A stretch of 64,000 bases of DNA from Hirudinaria manillensis (Eukaryota; Annelida; Clitellata; Hirudinida; Hirudinidae). Numbering within the stretch: the first letter of the stretch is position 1; each line of letters starts with the position of its first letter. The notes beneath the pieces were generated by a model. It saw only the letters and a list, made by a program, of their open reading frames with translations. It was not told where the DNA came from and ran no database searches. The translations under genes and the position numbers were made by a program. Below are positions 25,582 to 38,616 of this stretch, piece by piece. The stretch lies in the NCBI GenBank assembly GCA_034509925.1, contig CM067537.1:247501-311500 (forward strand). Direction: 5' to 3'.

Positions 25582-28376
25582 ATGGAGCCAGCACAAAAAG
25601 CCGTAGCAGGTCCCGATGCTGCGACTGCAGTGAGGGGTCAGGTCTGCCCGCAAGAGATAAAACCCGAGGAAGAAACTGTCCACCCCCCTCAGAGTGTTGG
25701 CCGGGAGTTTGTGAGGCAGTACTACACCATGCTCCACCAGGCCCCAGAGCAGCTGCATAGGTTGGTGCTGCAACTTCATATCTTTTGGTTTTTTTTTGTG
25801 ATTTTCTATTCTTTTTGTTTTTATTTCTGTTCTTTAAATTGTTCTGAAAGATCTCTAATTGTATTCTTGCCAAGAAAGTAATTTTCCTTTTAATTTTTCA
25901 CAGAGCTTTCTAATTGGTGTCCACATAAGATAGTCTCACAAATAAAATTGCATAATAATAAAATTTCATAAATAATAAATACCAATAAAAACCGTCGAAC
26001 CATTCCTCCAGGTTTTACAGCCAAAACTCCAGTTTCCTTCACGAGCGCTGGTTCGGGTCAGTTGCCGAGGAAAAGCCTGCCGTCGGTCAACTGGTGAGTT
26101 TGATTTTAACGAACGAGCGACTGATTCTTTGCTGACAACAGCAACTGCTTTGAAGATGTTTTGTTAAAAATGTTGTCGAAAATCTCGCAGGAGATCTACG
26201 AGCGCATCAACACGCTCGGATTCAGGGATTGTCATGCGAAGATTTTCCAGGTGGACAGCCAGCTGAGCGTCAGTCACACGGTGGTGGTACAGGTAAGTGG
26301 CTAACGAAGCGACTAGGAGCACCCGTCGTGGAACTACCTCCCCGAGATGAAAGCAATGGCGACGATGACGCTCTATTGTAATCCGTCACAGGTGCTCGGC
26401 GAATTGTCAAACGACGGGAGACCCCTGAGGAAGTTCATGCAGACGTTCGTGCTGGTTCCTCAGACGAACAAGAAGTATTACGTCCACAACGACATTTTCC
26501 GCTACCAGGACGATGACGTAGGACCGGAGACGCCGAACGAACCCGAATGCAGTGAGTCGAAATTTGATCGGTTCAAAGATTGGGGAGAATTTAAGAGTTT
26601 GGTGGTTTGTGGTGTGCGTTGTCGGAGGTTTTTGCTTTTGCTGTTCCGTTGATTAGGATTTATTTCGGCAACGTACATCTATTACTCGTGTCGAGATGAC
26701 AAATTATGGCATCTACATGTTTTTCAATTCAAACTACTTTCCAGACAACGGGGTCGGAAAGGAGGAGGCGGACGTCCAATCCGGAGCGACCGAACAACTG
26801 AACGAAGCCCTGTACGTCCAGCAGGTGGAAGAGGAGGTCATCCTGCCAGAACAGGATCCTCGTCGGGAAATCACGTAAGTTTTTAAGGAAAAAAGTTGCT
26901 CGATTTCGATTCTAAACCGACGTCGGTGACGTTTCAGGGTCGTTGCGGGAGAAACGAAGGGGGAAGATGTTGAAGAAACGGAGCAGGAAGTGCCTGTCGC
27001 AGTTCCTGTCGCCGTCCAGAAGGAGGAGGCGGAGACTGTCGAGGAGAAGCAAGAGGTGCAAGCGGAGGCTGAAAATAAGGACGTCGTTTCTGACGTCAGA
27101 GAATCCTGTGAGTAAAGATCGAATTGCATTTCCGATGAAATCCGTCCGTCTTCCGTACTAAGTTCTTGATCGTCATTTATTTTCCGATCCAGCCCTACCT
27201 CCTCAGAAGTTGAGCTGGGCCGAGATGGCCAGTCGCAACGTCGGCTCTTCTTTCAAGCCCCTCCCAACCAAGGTGGAGTCGAGGAACGGCAACGTCCAAT
27301 CGTCGGCACCTTCCGCCAACAGCGTTCGTTCCACTCCGCCCCCTCCGACTGCCAAATCTCCACCTCCTCCCCAGCAGCAGCAACAACAACAGCAGATGCC
27401 TGTGCAGCAACAACAACAAACCCAGAAAGCTGTTAATTCGAGGTGCAACTGATTGAATCCTGATCCCATCTTGGATTGTACTTTAATGCCCTGTGTTGTT
27501 GTAGAGAACATCAACAATATCAACAACAACAGCAGCCGGTGACCGGAGGTGAAGAGGCCAACAACACCCCTGGTCGGGGCACTCAGTTTTACCCCGACCA
27601 GCAGCAGATCTTCGTCGGGAACCTGCCGCACCACATGACCGACCAGGATCTCAAGGATTTCTTTGAGAGTGAGAGGATTATAATAATAATAATAATAATT
27701 GTTTATTTCGTAACAACTACAGTTATTTATTTATTAATAACCTGTTAATTCATGTTACAAATGTTGTATAACATGTGTGATTGCTCTAAAAAAATAAGTA
27801 AATAAATGATTTAATTTCTTCAGAATATGGCAAAGTGCTGGATATCAGAATCAATAGAAAGCCAAATAACAGCCTGCCTGTGAGTTTACGTCGATGACTC
27901 TATGCCTTTAAAATCTATTTGCATGTCACATGATTTCAATTCATCGTACGTTGCAATCATTCTCGTTTGCTACGTGAACATCCCCATGTTTTTCACAGAA
28001 CTTTGGATTCATCGCATTCGAAAGTGCAGAGACCGTCAAGCACATACTGAGTCTGAGGGTGGGCTAAGACTTTTACGACATCATAACTAATAATTAATAA
28101 CCAATTATTAATAATTAATAACCAATTAATACCTAATTAGGAACTAATTAAGACCGTAAGTCTGAAGTGGATGTCGATTTTTCGTTGCAGCCTCTGTATT
28201 ACAACGGAAGATTCCGAGTGAACGTCGAGGAGAAGAAGAGGCGGGAGGACCTCGTCCCTCGACCCAGGAGCGGAAACCCGTCCGCCCAGACGACCCGCTT
28301 CAACCGCAGCCCGGACCGGGCCGTCGCCAACGGAAACCTCGCGCCCGTCCACAAGGAGGAGACCCCGAAGGCCTGA
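25582..28376 (+). CDS. G3BP: G3BP-like stress-granule assembly factor (NTF2-like plus RRM)
   Basis: Eleven exons: 25582-25760, 26012-26093, 26191-26292, 26392-26551, 26745-26874, 26938-27107, 27193-27442, 27505-27668, 27824-27879, 27999-28058, 28191-28376; 512 residues. The NTF2-like domain (about 38-165) has [29 protein letters not shown] and [11 protein letters not shown]-type signatures. It is followed by an acidic, Glu/Val-rich segment (about 175-274), a Pro/Gln-rich stretch with poly-Q (about 275-385), and an RRM (about 390-465) with RNP2 IFVGNLP and RNP1 NFGFIAF. G3BP dimers bind RNA and nucleate stress granules in known species. The C-terminal 45 residues are basic but contain no RGG motif, unlike vertebrate G3BP1/2. 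In-frame ATGs at 25540 and 25555 are alternative starts; the ATG at 25582 is the most internal choice. Confidence 0.88.
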
Positions 28377-29687: not shown

Positions 29688-32600
29688 TTAACGTAAATAA
29701 GAAATATTGATTACAAGAAGGATTACATGTTAAGTTTCGCTGTGAAACCTGCTGTGGACTTGATAGTTACTCTTCAAGCTTCTGGTGCTTGGGTGCGTTT
29801 TGGACCCGGAATAGGATGGATGGGAATTAGATCGTGAAATTCATCTCATTGATAGCATAATAGCCAAGAACAAATCATACAATTTCAACGACATTTTGTA
29901 TTTAATGTTTACAAAACTACTCTAAATATTCGTTTTACATTCATTGGCAGTAATGAAAGAACTTATACTCTGCAAATAGGCAATACCGTATCATGTGCAT
30001 CAGACGGCAATGGCCACCAACTGCCTTTATTTTTGATCAGAATTTCTGTATTTTCGGACAGAATTATTGCATTTTTTAAAGTTCATTTCGAATAAAAACG
30101 CTTCCAAATATTATAAAAATTTTCCTTTAGATTTTTACTTTATTTATTAATTTTATATGTTGTTGCAAATTATTTTTAAAAAGGTTCATTTTAAAAATTT
30201 TGTAATAAATTTGTAAAATTATATAGTAATGAAAAATAATTCTTGAATTTATTACTTTCCGGTTAATGATCTTTTGTTGTGCACCTAGGACATCGGTCAA
30301 ACCGTTTGAAAAGTGGGTGAAGAAACTCGCAGCAAAATCTTTAAACTCAAATCTAAATATTGTCTGCACTCGGAATACTTTAATTATACAAATTACAGAA
30401 TAAAATACAGTAAAAAATGGCAAGGAAGAACAAGAGTAAGAAACAGACTACAAATAGCGTTGGAGGCGTTGAGGTTAGCAAGTCTGAAGTCAGTGTTCCG
30501 CAAGTTGCTACCACGACCACTGAAGTCGTCGAAGTGCCTGAAGAGGCTCCTGTGCCGGTCAAGTCGAACGAGAAGGCAGGAATCGAAGACATTCAAGTTG
30601 TTCAATTCCGAGAAACCGTTAAACCGGATAACTTTGAATTGAAGACAGACAAGAAGAACAAAAACAAAAAGAAGGCTGGTACTGCCAACGTTCCAAAAGT
30701 TCATAAGCAGACTGTTGCAGAAAATTCGAGCAGTCATGAATCTTATTCTCAATCAATAACTAAAGAAGATGTCAACTCAGAGAGTCAAATCATCCAAAAA
30801 TCAGAAGACAACACCCCAACAAACAGCCGGGAAGTAAAGGAAACAGTTGAAGATACGACTGTAGAGATTGTTGATAAAAAAATCGAAGTCGTCGCATCTG
30901 AAGCAGACAAACCAGAAGTTTGTTCACCTGTTGAGGAAGTTCAGAAACGAAAGTGCTACAGTCATGGCATGCTGCTACAAATCCTGAAGACAGCGACACT
31001 CATTAAACCTCAACTTAGATGCATCGAATTAGCAAAAGCGGTTCCGCACAGCCATCCAATAGTCCAGGAAAGACCTCGTGAACAAGAAAGCTTAGTGGAT
31101 CGCGGACAGAGAAAAGCTTTTCTGGGAATCGAGAAGAACGTGGTTTTGCACAAATCTTCTGTTGCCTGGCAGACGACCAGGAAAGATGCACCCAAAGACG
31201 ACGTGACTTCCTTGGTTCAAAAGGTCAGAGGTCTCCTTAACAAATTATCTCCCGACAACTTCGACAAGATCCTGTCCGACATCAAAGAATTATCTTTCGA
31301 TACGCTGGAGAAACTCGTCGGATGCATCAAGGTGCTTTTCGAGAAAGCGGTCATGGAGCCTGGATTCTCGGCCACGTACGCCAAGTTGGCTTTCAACTTG
31401 TCGGGTCTCGCGTTGGAAGAAGGAGATAAAAAAGTAAACTTTAAGACTCTCCTCATACGCGAATGTCAGAAAGAATTTGAGAAGGACAGGACCGATGAGA
31501 AACTCATGTTCGAACTGACTCAAAAAATTCTCGCCGCCCAAACCGAAGAACAGAAAAAGCTCTTGACGGAAGAAAAGCAGCTGGCAGTCTTCAAAGCCAA
31601 AAAACGATCACTGGGCAACATCAAGTTCATCGGAGAACTATTCAAAATGAACATACTCTCTGAGGCGATTATGGTCACGTGCATCAACAAGCTACTGAAG
31701 AGACCAGAAGACGAGGAAAGCATGGAGTGTCTTTGCCAACTCCTGAGCACCATTGGAAAATCTCTCGATGCAAAGTCGAAGCCAAAGGTCGATTCCTTGT
31801 TCGTCGAGTTGAATAAACTGATCACCAACAAGACGACATCTTCTAGAATCAGATTCATGATCATGGATGTCATCGATCTCAGAAAGTTGAGCTGGATTCC
31901 CAAGAGAAACGAAGTTCCGACGACCATTGCACAGGTGCACAAAGATGCAGAAAGAGAGAAGCAACTATCCTCTACGTACGCTAACGCGTCTTCGAAGAAG
32001 ACGGCTACTTATGCGAAACAGACTGAATCTTTCAACACCAGAAAACAGCCAACCAACCTGCTTGTACAAGATCACTTTAGGTCTAACGTAAAGAAGGGAA
32101 GTGATATCAAAAAGACCAAGAAGGTAGTAGACGATTCTAACAAGCCAAAAACTGTGGGCAATAAGTCGTTGAATAAATTCAGCCTTCTGAAGAATCTTTG
32201 CAATGATGACGACGACAAAGCTCGAAAGAAGACTTATGATTCGTCTTCAAGTTCCGTCGAAAGCGTAAAATCTGTCAAAAGTAACGAATCGTCGAACCGT
32301 ATCGAAGTCGTTTCAACTGTCCCTGATCAAACAGTCATTACACGCACTGAAATGGAGCTCAAGGTGAAATCGAGAGTAGAAGAATTTCTTTCTTTGAAAG
32401 ATTTGAGCGAAGCCATGGAAAGCATTAGGGAGTTGAAAACACAGACATGTTACAGGAATGCAGTTCGATTCTTCTACGTCTCATTGTCTCAGAACCTTGA
32501 GAAATCGTCAGTTGTGAGACAGCAAGTTGGACTTCTTCACAAGAGTGTTCTTGAAAAGATGATTGCCCCTGTCGAGGCCTACCTCGATGCTTTGATCAAG

Positions 32601-33269
32601 TTTTCGACGTTCGCAAGCGATTTGGTCGTCGACATCCCTCAAGTCTGGACTTACATTTCCGAACTGGTTACGCCTGTTATCCTGGATTCTGAATTGATCA
32701 AAATCGAAGCATTGGCGCGAGCTTCGTCGTCGTCCGATGTCGAATTGGACGAAGATTTGAACGGCGAAGAAGCTGATTACAACGCCATGTTGTTGGCAAC
32801 CATCCTCAACGGAGTTTCAGCTTCAAAGGGCAAAGAAGTGGCCGAGAAACTGTGGTCAACTGCTGGTATCGGATGGGAATCCATTGTGAAGTACAGCACT
32901 GTCGAGGTGTTCCAAAAGAAATACTTGAATGTCTGATTGTCATCTGCCTTTTCGCTATTACTTAACTCGATTAAATTAATAAAAGATTTGTCTTAAACTG
33001 ATTGCAAAACGTATTTCTGGTTGAGTTTGTATTAACTTTCAAAGTGGAAAAAATAATAAACGTTAATTTGGTTCAGTCAAAGTCAGAACAATTGAAGCTT
33101 GTTAATTCTATTATTAATTTTATTAACGTCTCAATTCACAAAGAATAAATCAAATCTCGAGGTGCAAAAACTACCAAACAATCCAAACAGAACACAAGAG
33201 GAACCATTTTAAATATGAATCACTAGTTTCCTAACAATCAACGAGGCTGGACTTTTATTTGGTTTAATT
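29688..33269 (+). repeat. Tandem duplication unit 1 (about 3.6 kb)
   Basis: Begins at TTAACGTAAATAAGAAATAT (about 29688) and ends at GGTTTAATT (33269). The whole unit, including an intronless eIF4G-like gene, about 700 bp of 5' flank and about 330 bp of 3' flank, recurs directly at 33270-36906. Direct head-to-tail copies indicate a local tandem duplication. Confidence 0.85.
30417..32936 (+). CDS. Intronless eIF4G-like translation initiation scaffold, copy 1
   Basis: One uninterrupted 839-codon frame with ATG in aaaATGG context and an in-frame stop just upstream. N-terminal 180 residues are Lys/Glu/Ser/Thr-rich and low complexity. Tyr181 starts an eIF4E-binding motif of form YxxxxL-phi (YSHGMLL). 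An MIF4G domain follows at about 262-515 with near-identity to animal eIF4G in the blocks KFIGELFKMNILSEAIM and TSSRIRFMIMDVIDLR, then an MA3 domain at about 645-765 (IPQVWTYISELVTPVI). The protein stops soon after, so the third HEAT (W2, Mnk-binding) domain is absent. eIF4G bridges eIF4E, eIF4A and eIF3 at mRNA caps. AATAAA lies 42 nt past the stop (32978-32983). All other confidently modelled multi-domain genes here are intron-rich, so a retrocopy origin is likely (inference). Confidence 0.88.
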   Translation: MARKNKSKKQTTNSVGGVEVSKSEVSVPQVATTTTEVVEVPEEAPVPVKSNEKAGIEDIQVVQFRETVKPDNFELKTDKKNKNKKKAGTANVPKVHKQTVAENSSSHESYSQSITKEDVNSESQIIQKSEDNTPTNSREVKETVEDTTVEIVDKKIEVVASEADKPEVCSPVEEVQKRKCYSHGMLLQILKTATLIKPQLRCIELAKAVPHSHPIVQERPREQESLVDRGQRKAFLGIEKNVVLHKSSVAWQTTRKDAPKDDVTSLVQKVRGLLNKLSPDNFDKILSDIKELSFDTLEKLVGCIKVLFEKAVMEPGFSATYAKLAFNLSGLALEEGDKKVNFKTLLIRECQKEFEKDRTDEKLMFELTQKILAAQTEEQKKLLTEEKQLAVFKAKKRSLGNIKFIGELFKMNILSEAIMVTCINKLLKRPEDEESMECLCQLLSTIGKSLDAKSKPKVDSLFVELNKLITNKTTSSRIRFMIMDVIDLRKLSWIPKRNEVPTTIAQVHKDAEREKQLSSTYANASSKKTATYAKQTESFNTRKQPTNLLVQDHFRSNVKKGSDIKKTKKVVDDSNKPKTVGNKSLNKFSLLKNLCNDDDDKARKKTYDSSSSSVESVKSVKSNESSNRIEVVSTVPDQTVITRTEMELKVKSRVEEFLSLKDLSEAMESIRELKTQTCYRNAVRFFYVSLSQNLEKSSVVRQQVGLLHKSVLEKMIAPVEAYLDALIKFSTFASDLVVDIPQVWTYISELVTPVILDSELIKIEALARASSSSDVELDEDLNGEEADYNAMLLATILNGVSASKGKEVAEKLWSTAGIGWESIVKYSTVEVFQKKYLNV

Positions 33270-34053
33270 GTTAACGTAAATAAGAAATATTGATTACAAG
33301 TTAAGTTTCGCTTTGAAAGGCTTCAGGATTCTGGTGCTTGGGTGCGTTTTGGATCCGGAATAGGATGAATGGGAATTAGATCGTGAAATTCATCTCATTG
33401 ATAGCTTAATAGCCAAGAAAAAATCATACAATTTCAACGACATTTTGTATTTAATATTTACAAAACTACTCTAAATATTCGTTTTACATTCATTGGCAGT
33501 AATGAAAGAACTTATACTCTGCAAATAGGCAATACCGTATCATGTGCATCAGACGGCAATGGCCACCAACTGCCTTTATTTTTGATCAGAATTTCTGTAT
33601 TTACGGACAGAATTATTGAATTTTTTAAAGTTCATTTCGGAATAAAAACTTTTCTAAATATTATAAAAATTTTCCTTTAGATTTTTACTTTATTATTTTT
33701 ATGTGTTGTTGTTGCAAATTATTTTTAAAAAGGTTCATTTTAATAATTTGGTAATAAATTTGTAAAATTATATAATTTGGTAATAAATTTGTAAAATTAT
33801 ATAATTTGGTAATAAATTTGTAAAATTATATAATTTGGTAATAAATTTTTAAAATTATATAGTAATGACAAATAATTCTTGAATTTATGACTTTCCGGTT
33901 AATGATCTTTTGTTGTGCACCTAGGACATCGGTCAAACCGTTTGAAAAGTGCGTGAAGAAACTCGCAGCAAAATCTTTAAACTCAAATCTAAATATTGTC
34001 TGCACTCGGAAGACTTTAATTATACAAATCACAGAAAAAAAATACAGAAAGAA
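32937..34053. other. Spacer between the two eIF4G-like copies
   Basis: Contains the 3' flank of copy 1, the duplication junction at about 33269/33270 and the 5' flank of copy 2. No independent gene seen. Confidence 0.7.
33740..33865 (+). repeat. 29-bp repeat expanded in the leader of eIF4G-like copy 2
   Basis: Four copies of a unit near TAATTTGGTAATAAATTTGT(AAAATTATA); the matching place in copy 1 (about 30195-30230) has one. It therefore arose after the tandem duplication, or was lost from copy 1. Confidence 0.8.
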
Positions 34054-36573
34054 ATGGCAAGGAAGAACAAGAGTAAGAAACAGACTGCAAACAGCGTTGG
34101 AGGCGTTGAGGTTAGCAAGTCTGAAGTCAGTGTTCCGCAAGTTGCTACCACGACCACTGAAGTCCACGAAGTGCCTGAAGCGGCTCCTGTGCCGGTCAAG
34201 TCGAACGAGAAGGCAGGAGTCGAAGACATTCAAGTTGTTCAAGTCCGAGAAACCGTTAAACCGGATAACTTTGAATTGAAGACAGACAAGAAGAACAAAA
34301 ACAAAAAGAAGGCTGGTACTGCCAACGTTCCAAAAGTTCATAAGCAGACTGTTGCAGAAAATTCGAGCAGTCATGAATCTCATTCTCAATCAATAACTAA
34401 AGAAGATGTCAACTCAGAGAGTCAAATCATCCAAAAAACAGAAGACAACACCCCAACAAACAGCCGGGAAGTAAAGGAAACAGTTGAAGATACGAATGTA
34501 GAGATTGTTGATAAAAAAATCGAAGTCGTCGCATCTGAAGCAGACAAACCAGAAGTTTGTTCAGCCGTAGAGGAAGTTCAGAAACGAAAGTGCTACAGTC
34601 ATGGCATGCTGCTACAAATCCTGAAGACAGCGACACTCATTAAACCTCAACTTCGCTGCATCGAATTAGCAAAAGCGGTTCCGCACAGCCATCCAATAGT
34701 CCAGGAAAGACCTCGTGAACAAGAAAGCTTAGTGGATCGCGGACAGAGAAAAGCTTTTCTGGGCATCGAGAAGAACGTGGTTTTGCACAAATCTTCTGTT
34801 GCCTGGCAGACGACCAGGAAAGATGCACCCAAAGACGACGTGACTTCCTTGGTTCAAAAGGTCAGAGGTCTCCTTAACAAATTATCTCCCGACAACTTCG
34901 ACAAGATCCTGTCCGACATCAAAGAATTATCTTTCGATACGCTGGAGAAACTCGTCGGATGCATCAAGGTGCTTTTCGAGAAAGCGGTCATGGAGCCTGG
35001 ATTCTCGGCCACGTACGCCAAGTTGGCTTTCAACTTGTCGGGTCTCGCGTTGGGAGAAGGAGATAAAAAAGTAAACTTTAAGACTCTCCTCATACGCGAA
35101 TGTCAGAAAGAATTTGAGAAGGACAGGACCGATGAGAAACTCATGTTCGAACTGACTCAAAAAATTCTCGCCGCCCAAACCGAAGAACAGAAAAAGCTCT
35201 TGACGGAAGAAAAGCAGCTGGCAGTCTTCAAAGCCAAAAAACGATCACTGGGCAACATCAAGTTCATCGGAGAACTATTCAAAATGAACATACTCTCTGA
35301 GGCGATTATGGTCACGTGCATCAACAAGCTACTGAAGAGACCAGAAGACGAGGAAAGCATGGAGTGTCTTTGCCAACTCCTGAGCACCATTGGAAAATCT
35401 CTCGATGCAAAGTCGAAGCCAAAGGTCGATTCCTTGTTCGTCGAGTTGAATAAACTGATCACCAACAAGACGACATCTTCTAGAATCAGATTCATGATCA
35501 TGGATGTCATCGATCTCAGAAAGTTGAGCTGGATTCCCAAGAGAAACGAAGTTCCGACGACTATTGCGCAGGTGCACAAAGATGCAGAAAGAGAGAAGCA
35601 ACTATCCTCTACGTACGCTAACGCGTCTTCGAAGAAGACGGCTACTTATGCGAAACAGACTGAATCTTTCAACACCAGAAAGCAGCCAACCAACCCGCTT
35701 GTACAAGATCACTTTAGGTCTAACGTAAAGAAGGGAAGTGATATCAAAAAGACCAAGAAGGTAGTAGACGATTCTAACAAGCCAAAAGCTGTGGGCAATA
35801 AGTCGTTGAATAAATTCAGCCTTCTGAAGAATCTTTGCAATGATGACGACGACAAATCCCGAAAGAAGACTTATGATTCGTCTTCAAGTTCCGTCGAAAG
35901 CGTAAAATCTGTCAAAAGTAACGAATCGTCGAACCGTATCGAAGTCGTTTCAACTGTCCCTGATCAAACAGTCATTACACGCACTGAAATGGAGCTCAAG
36001 GTGAAATCGAGAGTAGAAGAATTTCTTTCTTTGAAAGATTTGAGCGAAGCCATGGAAAGCATTAGGGAGTTGAAAACACAGACATGTTACAGGAATGCAG
36101 TTCGATTCTTCTACGTCTCATTGTCTCAGAACCTTGAGAAATCGTCAGCTGTGAGACAGCAAGTTGGACTTCTTCACAAGAGTGTTCTTGAAAAGACGAT
36201 TGCCCCTGTCGAGGCCTACCTCGATGCTTTGATCAAGTTTTCGACATTCGCAAGCGATTTGGTCGTCGACATTCCTCAAGTCTGGACTTACATTTCCGAA
36301 CTGGTTACGCCTGTTATCCTGGATTCTGAATTGATCAAAATCGAAGCATTGGCACGAGCTTCGTCGTCGTCCGATGTCGAATTGGACGAAGATTTGAACG
36401 GCGAAGAAGGTGATTACAACGCCATGTTGTTGGCAACCATCCTCAACGGAGTTTCAGCTTCAAAGGGCAAAGAAGTGGCCGAGAAACTGTGGTCAACTGC
36501 TGGTATCGGATGGGAATCCATTGTGAAGTACAGCACTGTCGAGGTGTTCCAAAAGAAATACTTGAATGTCTGA
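34054..36573 (+). CDS. Intronless eIF4G-like translation initiation scaffold, copy 2
   Basis: Again 839 codons without interruption, about 98% identical to copy 1 by eye (about 16 residue differences, no indels). The same Tyr181 eIF4E-binding motif, MIF4G and MA3 domains are intact, and no W2 domain follows. The frame stays open upstream of the ATG to 33949, but copy 1 has a stop there, so the shared ATG at 34054 is chosen. AATAAA at 36615-36620. Differences cluster in the disordered N-terminus; the folded cores are nearly unchanged. Both copies look translatable; whether both are expressed, or whether a parental intron-containing eIF4G exists elsewhere, cannot be told from this window. Confidence 0.87.
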   Translation: MARKNKSKKQTANSVGGVEVSKSEVSVPQVATTTTEVHEVPEAAPVPVKSNEKAGVEDIQVVQVRETVKPDNFELKTDKKNKNKKKAGTANVPKVHKQTVAENSSSHESHSQSITKEDVNSESQIIQKTEDNTPTNSREVKETVEDTNVEIVDKKIEVVASEADKPEVCSAVEEVQKRKCYSHGMLLQILKTATLIKPQLRCIELAKAVPHSHPIVQERPREQESLVDRGQRKAFLGIEKNVVLHKSSVAWQTTRKDAPKDDVTSLVQKVRGLLNKLSPDNFDKILSDIKELSFDTLEKLVGCIKVLFEKAVMEPGFSATYAKLAFNLSGLALGEGDKKVNFKTLLIRECQKEFEKDRTDEKLMFELTQKILAAQTEEQKKLLTEEKQLAVFKAKKRSLGNIKFIGELFKMNILSEAIMVTCINKLLKRPEDEESMECLCQLLSTIGKSLDAKSKPKVDSLFVELNKLITNKTTSSRIRFMIMDVIDLRKLSWIPKRNEVPTTIAQVHKDAEREKQLSSTYANASSKKTATYAKQTESFNTRKQPTNPLVQDHFRSNVKKGSDIKKTKKVVDDSNKPKAVGNKSLNKFSLLKNLCNDDDDKSRKKTYDSSSSSVESVKSVKSNESSNRIEVVSTVPDQTVITRTEMELKVKSRVEEFLSLKDLSEAMESIRELKTQTCYRNAVRFFYVSLSQNLEKSSAVRQQVGLLHKSVLEKTIAPVEAYLDALIKFSTFASDLVVDIPQVWTYISELVTPVILDSELIKIEALARASSSSDVELDEDLNGEEGDYNAMLLATILNGVSASKGKEVAEKLWSTAGIGWESIVKYSTVEVFQKKYLNV

Positions 36574-36929
36574 TTGTCATCTGCCTTTTCGCTATTACTT
36601 AACTCGATTAAATTAATAAAAGATTTGTCTTAAACTGATTGCAAAACGTATTTCTGGTTGAGTTTGTATTAACTTTCAAAGTGGAAAAAATAATAAACGT
36701 TAATTTGGTTCAGTCAAAGTCAGAACAAATGAAACTTGTTAATTCTATTATTAATTTTATTAACGTCTCAATTCACAAAGAATAAATCAAATCTCGAGGT
36801 GCAAAAACTACCAAACAATCCAAACAAAACACAAGAGGAACCATTTTAAATATGAAGGACTAGTTTCCTAACAATCAACGAGGCTGGACTTTTATTTGGT
36901 TTAATTCGTTATAAAAACAGACAAATTTA

Positions 36930-38616
36930 TTATTCGAGCAGTCCTAACATGTCTGCCAAAGAATTCAGGAAGAAGTCCGGTTGAAGTTTTGCCTCCGACT
37001 TCCTCGCTTCCTCGATGGTGGATACTCCGGTCTGCACCAAAAGGGATCTCATGTTGCACTCGTTCGCAAATGCTATGTCCGTGTCCAGCCTTCGGTTTTG
37101 GAAAATGCATAAAGAGTGACATTTTCAAAGACTAAACATAAAATTCTGAACGTTTTTGCCAAAAAACGTACCTGTCCCCGATCACGAGAGCCCGGTTCGC
37201 ATCCAATCCGAACCTCTTCCTGGCGAATTCGAACATCATTTCGCTCGGCTTTCCGCAGACGAAATCCGGCGACCTCTCGGAAGCCGTCGCGACCAAAGCG
37301 ACGCAAGATCCGGAGCCTGAAAGCAAGGCAGAATGTCCGAATCGAAGAAAATGGTAAGCGGAACGGAAGACTCACCTGGCAATAAAATATCATTGGCCAC
37401 CGGCAAGCTCCCGTCCAGATTGGTGGCCACAAACAGGCAGTCGGGCGACCTTAGGTACCTGGCCGCCTTTGCTGCTTTGAAGTACGTTAGGTCTTCGTCC
37501 ATTCCCATGACGACACATCGGACCTGAAAAGTCGAGACGCGATCGGTTAAACGCGTTGCATTTTAAGCGTCGCTTTAAAGAATCGTCTCACGTCGGGATC
37601 CGGGACGTATTGCGTTGCCATTTGGATGCCACCCTTGCCAGCTGGTGCTGCCTAATGAAAAATGACAACAAAGTATTCGTTATTAAATAAAAATCATGAA
37701 TTATTATACTCAAAAAGAACTTATTGGTTAATTATTTTGATCGGAAATCGATTTTAACAATGGATTAAAATAAAAATTCATTACAAGTTGTTTCACCTCG
37801 TTCCTAACTACGGACAGACCTGCCGCTTCCAACTCTTGCATCAGGCTCTCGGAACCGAGGCAGAAAATCTTTCCAACTTTGCTGCCATTTTTGGCCTTCA
37901 AGTCACTGAGGTGGCAAGCGGCCACGTAACCTGATGAAATGATGCTTTCCTGAAGACGATTGGCGATATTTAGAATCGGGTTTGAGGGAATCATTAACGA
38001 TACGACGTCCTAAATACTTAGTTTCAGAAGAAAAAAGTTTCAAATAATGGATCTTTAAACATTAATTGTACCCATATATTTATCCTATTGATTTATAAAA
38101 TGTCTTAGACAAAAACCATCATATATTTCTAATTAAAGAATACTCAAAACAAACCTCATTGGCTGGAAAGCCCATGGATGTCAATTTATCTACAAATTGT
38201 TTTCTTGTCTTTGTGCTGTTGTTTGTGACATAGAATAGCTTTTTGCCCTATTTAAAGGAAAATTAATTGAATTGAAACTTGTTGGAAATAAAACAGGTGA
38301 ATCAGATAAGCATAAAAGTTGGTTTCTTACTAATGACTGCAGTTTCTTCAGAACTTCTGGTGTACCTAGGATTGCACTGTTACCCCTGTACAAGACACCT
38401 GTATTACAATGTCAATCAACTTCTAAGTGTGAAATGTGTTGCTGACTCTATATTTAAGCATCCTAGGGTTTGCGTTTTGGCATTCTGCTTAAAAGAAATG
38501 ATTGATTCTTCAATAAATCTTTGCTTACCATCGCAATCAAACAATATCGCATCCACGTCTTTAAAGAAATCCTTCAAAATATCCGATGTCAATTCTCGAC
38601 ACTTTTTTCGCTCCAT
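36930..38616 (-). CDS. Phosphoglycolate phosphatase-type HAD phosphatase, copy A
   Basis: Eight exons, read on the minus strand: 38616-38529, 38398-38331, 38247-38155, 37949-37797, 37651-37592, 37523-37376, 37316-37172, 37089-36930; 304 residues. HAD motif I is DCDGVLYRG with Asp27 as nucleophile and Asp29 as acid/base; motif II is VTNNSTKTR; motif III Lys sits in FVCGKPS; motif IV is IGDRLDTDIAFA. A class C2 cap lies between motifs II and III. Size and motifs fit the animal PGP / pyridoxal phosphatase (chronophin) / 4-nitrophenylphosphatase family, which removes 2-phosphoglycolate or related metabolites; the substrate cannot be told from sequence. The stop and a poly(A) signal overlap (AATAAA on minus strand at 36931-36926). 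Convergent with eIF4G-like copy 2. Confidence 0.88.

What the first reader, a model, noticed from the sequence alone, without database searches (positions are those of the whole stretch)
29688..36906. Tandem pair of intronless eIF4G-like genes
Two 839-codon genes with intact eIF4E-binding, MIF4G and MA3 regions lie head to tail without introns, amid genes with 4 to 23 exons. This is best explained by retroposition of an eIF4G mRNA followed by tandem duplication of the whole 3.6-kb unit. Both copies are open, so at least the ancestor was kept under selection. Extra eIF4G genes are known to act in germ-line translation in other animals.
Basis: partly seen in the sequence, partly recalled or inferred. 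Interest (0 to 1): 0.72.

Follow-up and report, generated by a model that had tools for sequence, protein, structure and literature searches.

The report
Tandem intronless eIF4G genes in leech
Two intact, intron-free copies of the translation-initiation scaffold eIF4G sit side by side in what looks like the Asian buffalo leech genome, and the same genome also carries intron-free copies of the genes for its two partner proteins (eIF4E and eIF4A), which suggests a second, reverse-transcribed cap-binding complex.

Summary
Two head-to-tail 839-codon ORFs (30417-32936, 34054-36573, +) lie in tandem units 29688-33269 and 33271-36906. Each has a YxxxxLL eIF4E-binding motif, MIF4G and MA3, and no intron. 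The copies differ by 1.2% in the CDS and 3.6% in the 5' flank.

Assembly statistics match the published Hirudinaria manillensis (leech) genome. Interrupted eIF4G genes exist there (C2:12.005, C2:12.045, C2:9.05, C7). The window pair and a third intronless gene (C2:6.44 Mb) form one clade next to the two C2:12.0 Mb genes. Silent sites between C12 and C2:6.44 are saturated while the domains stay 54-55% identical, so intron loss is old, the ORFs were kept by selection, and only the doubling is recent. They lack W2 and end where the long eIF4G appears to splice on to W2.

Beyond the finding, the genome holds intronless full-length eIF4E (3) and eIF4A (5) genes, so each eIF4F subunit has intronless duplicates. 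Other RNA helicases show the same; PABP and chaperonin searches did not. Best reading: a retro-derived alternative eIF4F, probably germline-restricted. Expression is untested.

The parts
29688..33269 (+). tandem unit 1 (3582 bp)
   Evidence: shared ends; divergence; only two places in the assembly
33271..36906 (+). tandem unit 2 (3636 bp)
30417..32936 (+). intronless eIF4G-like gene, copy 1, 839 aa
34054..36573 (+). intronless eIF4G-like gene, copy 2, 839 aa (frame open upstream to a GTG at 33949; the ATG shared with copy 1 is preferred)
30957..30977 (+). eIF4E-binding motif YSHGMLL, copy 1
   Evidence: register with YDRDFLL
34594..34614 (+). eIF4E-binding motif YSHGMLL, copy 2
31221..31889 (+). 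MIF4G domain, copy 1
   Evidence: coordinates
34858..35526 (+). MIF4G domain, copy 2
   Evidence: coordinates
32361..32687 (+). MA3 domain, copy 1
   Evidence: coordinates
35998..36324 (+). MA3 domain, copy 2
   Evidence: coordinates
32978..32983 (+). first AATAAA after the stop of copy 1 (possible poly(A) signal; another at 33055)
   Evidence: function inferred
36615..36620 (+). first AATAAA after the stop of copy 2 (possible poly(A) signal; another at 36692)
   Evidence: function inferred
33743..33858 (+). 29-bp repeat in unit 2, start found at 33743, 33772, 33801 and 33830; accounts for the 87-bp gain against unit 1

Best explanation
An eIF4G mRNA of a leech ancestor was reverse-transcribed and inserted, and gave a lineage of intronless short eIF4G genes (now C2:6.44 Mb and the C12 pair). 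One of them sits downstream of a G3BP-like gene and was recently doubled by a 3.6-kb tandem duplication. The proteins keep an eIF4E-binding helix, the MIF4G (eIF4A-binding) domain and MA3, but not W2 (the MNK-binding end; role recalled), so they should still bridge cap-bound eIF4E to eIF4A and the 43S complex, without MNK control. Because the genome also has intact intronless eIF4E and eIF4A genes, I think they form a retro-derived second eIF4F used in a restricted tissue, most likely the germ line. Shown: tandem copies, domains, absence of introns that relatives have, old divergence, purifying selection, existence of the partner genes. Inferred: retroposition as the route of intron loss, expression, complex formation, germ-line use.
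For: Domains and motif. Relatives with introns (inferred from frame breaks and GT/AG ends, no transcripts): C2:12.005 has one inside MA3, C2:12.045 two inside MIF4G, C7 and C2:9.05 several; the window frame runs through those places. Tree: intronless clade 100/99; that clade with the C2:12.0 Mb genes is set off from human, C7 and C2:9.05 with 100/100. Selection: C12 copy 1 against C2:6.44 pS 0.82, pN 0.38 over 680 aligned codons in open frames; copy 1 against copy 2 dS 0.022, dN 0.0092, ratio 0.41, Fisher p 0.024. W2: 6 matches in the genome, one at C2:12.002 Mb downstream of C2:12.005, none near C12, C2:6.44 or C2:12.045. Partners: three full-length intronless eIF4E, five eIF4A, dN/dS well below 1 among those compared.
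Against: No expression data. No poly(A) tract or target-site duplication recognised. The ratio 0.41 rests on 30 differences, and 11 of the 18 nonsynonymous ones lie in codons 1-255, so one copy may be relaxing. The intronless eIF4E genes lie on C11 and the eIF4A genes megabases away on C12; nothing shows co-expression. Intronless arrays of DDX23, eIF4A-III and a UAP56-like helicase show the pattern is not limited to eIF4F. PABP, a further eIF4G partner, shows no intronless array. The W2 search also missed C7, so absence by that search is not proof for any one gene, though the window frames end in stops before any such domain.
Confidence: 0.6

Rival explanations
1. The genes are functional but only dosage or redundancy copies of a short eIF4G isoform, expressed broadly, with no dedicated complex.
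For: Motif, MIF4G and MA3 are kept; C2:12.045 is also a W2-less eIF4G, with introns.
Against: Identity to C2:12.005 is only 53% in MIF4G and 46% in MA3, more drift than a dosage copy needs.
Confidence: 0.2
2. Tandem array of decaying retrocopies with no lasting role.
For: Copies do die here: an intronless eIF4E at C11:5.003 with stops inside and a broken DDX23-like copy at C9:6.995.
Against: Saturated silent sites with 680 aligned codons open in both C12 and C2:6.44 mean long maintenance.
Confidence: 0.12
3. Dominant-negative or decoy eIF4G (translation repressor, or bait for a parasite protease).
For: Short form without W2; the N-terminal 255 codons change fastest between the copies (dN 0.019, dS 0.031).
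Against: MIF4G is nearly unchanged between the copies (1 nonsynonymous difference in codons 256-520).
Confidence: 0.05
4. Assembly artefact: two haplotypes laid end to end.
For: Divergence of 1-4% is in the range of allelic divergence in some invertebrates (recalled).
Against: Only the 3.6-kb unit is doubled, with sharp ends one base apart; the published HiFi reads average 18.73 kb (passage), longer than the 7.2-kb array.
Confidence: 0.03

Closest known systems
Drosophila eIF4G2 (testis eIF4G) with eIF4E-3
   Same: A second eIF4G gene beside a canonical one, with extra eIF4E paralogues in the same animal (PMC4388691, passages seen).
   Different: Here the extra genes are intronless, tandem and W2-less, and eIF4A is duplicated too; expression unknown; no evidence of common origin. 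Intron content and domain ends of the fly gene were not looked up.
Canonical eIF4G1/eIF4G3
   Same: eIF4E motif, MIF4G and MA3 in the same order.
   Different: No introns in the CDS, short N-terminus (no PABP site identified), no W2.
eIF4G2/DAP5/NAT1
   Same: MIF4G and MA3.
   Different: DAP5 lacks an eIF4E site and has W2 (recalled); here the site is present and W2 absent. Separate DAP5-like candidates lie at C4:7.35 Mb and C8:6.17 Mb, where MIF4G and W2 matches lie near each other (assignment not tested).
Functional retrogenes of housekeeping genes (general knowledge)
   Same: Intronless, open, under purifying selection, interrupted relatives elsewhere.
   Different: Later tandem amplification, and parallel copies for all three eIF4F subunits.

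Membership tests
eIF4G | MIF4G domain most like eIF4G rather than other MIF4G proteins | tested here: met
   human eIF4G1 E 1.4e-85, eIF4G2/DAP5 1.8e-34, CWC22 7.9e-4; Pfam
eIF4G | YxxxxL-phi eIF4E-binding motif upstream of MIF4G | tested here: met
   YSHGMLL aa 181-187 in both copies, in register with YDRDFLL; binding itself not tested
eIF4G | MA3 domain after MIF4G | tested here: met
eIF4G (long metazoan form) | C-terminal W2 domain | tested here: not met
   no W2 among the families matched; PF02020 search of the genome: 6 matches, none on C12
eIF4G | PABP-binding N-terminal site | not tested
   no motif model at hand; no Pfam match over cut-off in the first 268 aa
Retrogene | no introns where relatives have them | tested here: met
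   frame breaks of relatives against the open frames
Retrogene | poly(A) tract and target-site duplication | tested here: inconclusive
   none recognised by eye at the unit ends; age and later tandem copying could erase them
Germ-line eIF4G (Drosophila eIF4G2 type) | expression restricted to germ line or testis | not testable with these tools
   no expression data
DAP5/NAT1 | lacks the eIF4E-binding motif (recalled) | tested here: not met
   motif present

The most novel reading that the evidence does not exclude
This leech carries a complete parallel eIF4F built from retrocopies (intronless eIF4E, eIF4G and eIF4A, each later amplified in tandem), whose eIF4E-eIF4G contact has drifted on both sides so that the set pairs within itself. 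The intronless eIF4E of C11:3.2173 keeps W56, W73, W102 and E103 of human eIF4E but has Y, T and M at H37, L131 and L135 (alignment; roles of residues recalled; the other two intronless copies read the same there, while the interrupted eIF4E at C11:2.91 reads WLE at that place). On the other side the window eIF4Gs have YSHGMLL where the eIF4G1-like gene has YDRDFLL. The set would serve translation of stored mRNAs in the germ line.
Probability: 0.25. Interest if true: 0.78.

Novelty: new variant of a known kind. Interest (0 to 1): 0.55.

Why it matters
Tissue-specific eIF4E and eIF4G paralogues are known from flies, but whether a whole cap-binding complex can be duplicated and insulated from the general one is open. 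Intronless, amplified genes for all three subunits in one leech would make that directly testable: which copies are expressed where, and whether they bind each other rather than the canonical partners.

Tried and rejected
Insect origin was suspected first. The insect odorant-receptor family PF02949 gave 0 matches (nothing rang in the controls either, so weak by itself); the annelid linker family PF16915 then gave 8, and the assembly statistics matched a leech paper. The mitochondrial COX1 search (PF00115) did not complete and was given up. The first 300-400 bases of three contigs were looked at for a telomere repeat: C1 and C7 read N, C12 showed no obvious repeat.

Paper searches returned nothing in their listings on extra or intronless eIF4G in annelids or leeches: 14 papers; 3; 10 listed of 13; 12 listed of 65; 6; 6; 8; 7. 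This covers open-licence PMC papers only. One search was for the fly eIF4G2 and for leech genomes.

The idea that C2:12.045 is itself a retrocopy was dropped: by eye it keeps introns at places also interrupted in C7. C7 as closest relative of the intronless genes is rejected (AU p 3e-49; the groups were named after seeing the tree). In the 12-row MIF4G tree the C10 copies (2 of the 3 used) and the 282-codon frame sit on very long branches, so they are not counted as members of the intronless clade. No structure prediction was run. On re-checking, the 5' flank divergence first taken (32/732) was found to reach past the unit and was replaced by 25/691; the flank is then not significantly more diverged than silent CDS sites (Fisher p 0.18; 0.043 with the old count).
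Full report
What is there. The window holds two head-to-tail ORFs of 839 codons, 30417-32936 and 34054-36573 on the + strand. Both carry MIF4G (aa 269-491) and MA3 (aa 649-757) over Pfam's cut-offs, and phmmer gives human eIF4G1 as best PDB relative of copy 1, E 1.4e-85. The motif YSHGMLL at aa 181-187 aligns with YDRDFLL of the eIF4G1-like gene in one tblastn stretch. The units are 29688-33269 and 33271-36906; a DNA search of the assembly with unit 1 finds only these two places. Mismatches within the units: CDS 30/2520, 5' flank 25/691, 3' flank 5/333. dS is 0.022 and dN 0.0092 (12 synonymous, 18 nonsynonymous); the deficit of nonsynonymous change is modest (Fisher p 0.024), and 11 of the 18 nonsynonymous differences fall in codons 1-255 against 1 in codons 256-520.

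Which organism. G000 has 148,429,096 bases in 23 contigs. Insect odorant receptors were not found (a weak negative); the annelid erythrocruorin-linker family gave 8 matches. PMC10671345 (passages seen) describes a Hirudinaria manillensis assembly of 22 scaffolds and 148.59 Mb, the 13 longest 14.76 to 8.30 Mb, scaffold N50 11.46 Mb, contig N50 9.58 Mb. G000 has C1 14,755,599, C6 11,463,318, C12 9,582,500 and C13 8,303,845. The identification is strong but rests on these numbers; the totals differ slightly (148.43 against 148.59 Mb, 23 against 22 pieces). The HiFi reads averaged 18.73 kb, longer than the 7.2-kb array.

Relatives in the same genome. A MIF4G family search gave 17 matches and a search with the window protein 18; both count exons and are lower bounds. 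I fetched ten stretches. Gene structures below are read from frame breaks with GT/AG ends, without transcripts. C2:12.005 (-) is the eIF4G1/3-like gene: SDQWSPVNPEGTKKYDRDFLL-like sequence aligns to human [21 protein letters not shown]. It has an intron inside MA3, after LKDIK, and a W2 match downstream (C2:12.002). C2:12.045 (+) has two introns inside MIF4G, by eye at places also interrupted in C7. C2:6.441 (-) is an intronless 706-codon frame (697 aa from its first Met) with YSREFLL, MIF4G and MA3, with a 282-codon MIF4G-like frame beside it. C10:9.38-9.39 holds three tandem intronless frames of 725-746 codons with a weaker MIF4G domain and repeated segments.

Descent. With MIF4G plus MA3 (8 rows, 457 columns, rooted by me on human, C7 and C2:9.05) the C12 pair and C2:6.44 form a clade (100/99), and that clade with C2:12.005 and C2:12.045 is set off from the other three with 100/100. 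The pairing of C2:12.005 with C2:12.045 is only 82/84, and neither is rejected as closest relative of the intronless genes (AU p 0.135 and 0.082); C7 is (p 3e-49). So the intronless genes come from the C2:12.0 Mb lineage. Between C12 and C2:6.44 pS is 0.82 and pN 0.38 over 680 aligned codons: saturated silent sites, open frames, and domains 54-55% identical. That is long purifying selection and an old loss of introns. The simplest route is one retroposition; two, or another route, cannot be excluded.

The missing tail. In C2:12.005 the reading frame passes EFLKKF and then GTAAATATGTGA, a plausible 5' splice site followed in frame by Val-Asn-Met-stop; splicing instead would lead to KVDYTVESPD and on to W2. 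The window proteins end KKYLNV-stop, C2:12.045 ends KKFLKY-stop, C2:6.44 ends KKYLRFEL-stop. In three of the four genes compared the stop lies at the same codon after the junction. I infer that the source mRNA was a short form read through this junction, which would explain why the paralogues lack W2. The W2 search gave 6 matches, none near C12, C2:6.44 or C2:12.045; it gave none at C7 either, so that search can miss a gene.

The partners. The eIF4E family search gave 13 matches, exons counted. Three are single open frames covering the domain (C11:2.9726, 3.2148, 3.2173 Mb; 196 aa each), the last two about 2.5 kb apart; a fourth (C11:5.003) carries stops. Pairwise dN/dS are 0.013/0.081, 0.046/0.152 and 0.051/0.225. 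Against human eIF4E, W56, W73, W102 and E103 are kept and H37, L131 and L135 are Y, T and M (alignment, for C11:3.2173; which residues bind cap and eIF4G is recalled). The eIF4A search (97 matches, many of them exons or other helicases) found five full-length intronless frames on C12 (four at 7.256-7.351 Mb, one at 5.44 Mb), one partial (7.345 Mb), and two genes matched in pieces (C12:4.661 in 4, C6:9.094 in 6). The protein is of eIF4A-I type (606 bits, against 524 for eIF4A-III, one copy). dN/dS is 0.001/0.036, 0.002/0.067 and 0.160/1.67 among four of the five that were read. So each eIF4F subunit has intact intronless copies.

How special is this. The DEAD-box search (36 of 137 candidates scored, 42 matches) also showed intronless arrays: DDX23-like at C9:6.987-7.005 (four open and one broken; three read, identity on one; a further 794-codon frame at C9:7.035 was not identified), eIF4A-III type at C9:6.294-6.2965 (two open, identity on one), and a UAP56-like helicase on C8 (four frames, two read; name recalled). 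PABP's MLLE domain gave 3 matches and the chaperonin family 54, without tandem arrays of full-length intronless copies; two longish open frames (C1:8.036, C2:5.746) match chaperonins weakly. The pattern favours RNA and translation genes in what I sampled, but the sample is small and I chose the families. This weakens a purely eIF4F-specific story and fits retroposition of genes active in the germ line followed by tandem amplification.

How it likely works. Inferred from the domains: the helix binds eIF4E, MIF4G binds eIF4A, MA3 supports eIF4A, and loss of W2 removes MNK recruitment (roles recalled). In flies a testis eIF4G2 and eIF4E-3 are needed in spermatogenesis (PMC4388691, passages).

Verdict. 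The tandem intronless pair is real. The intron loss is old, the doubling recent. The wider finding, intronless copies of all three eIF4F subunits in one leech genome, is the part worth following.

Noticed in passing
G000 C11:2.9726, 3.2148, 3.2173 Mb (L046, L045, L044): Three intact intronless eIF4E genes, two about 2.5 kb apart, plus a copy with stops at C11:5.003.
   Followed up: yes
G000 C12:7.256-7.351 Mb and 5.440 Mb (L063-L066): Five full-length intronless eIF4A-I-type genes and one partial, on the window's chromosome, with dN far below dS among the four read.
   Followed up: yes
G000 C9:6.987-7.005 Mb (L060-L062): Intronless tandem array of DDX23/PRP28-like spliceosomal helicase genes, four open and one broken; an unidentified 794-codon helicase frame at C9:7.035.
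   Followed up: partly
G000 C9:6.293-6.299 Mb (L069, L070): Two intronless eIF4A-III-type genes and a fragmentary third; a longer-gene candidate lies at C13:3.312 Mb.
   Followed up: partly
G000 C8:0.554, 0.600, 0.704, 0.707 Mb (L067, L068): Four intronless helicase frames of 429-468 codons; the two read look like UAP56/DDX39 (name recalled).
   Followed up: partly
G000 C10:9.38-9.39 Mb (L014, L015): Three tandem intronless frames of 725-746 codons with a weak C-terminal MIF4G domain; the segment NPHARLFEVLRFK(A/T)NNKL occurs three times in each; meaning unknown.
   Followed up: partly
L009:2814-3659 (-), G000 C2:6.439 Mb: 282-codon open frame with a diverged MIF4G domain downstream of the intronless eIF4G at C2:6.44; perhaps a partial copy.
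   Followed up: partly
window 26374-27670 (+) and 37171-37511 (-): G3BP-like gene (NTF2 and RRM pieces) upstream of the pair, and a convergent gene that looks like a HAD-type phosphatase (recalled; the piece tried gave no Pfam match).
   Followed up: partly
G000 C5:5.9807 Mb: W2 domain in an uninterrupted 509-codon frame, perhaps another intronless translation factor; the region could not be fetched.
   Followed up: no
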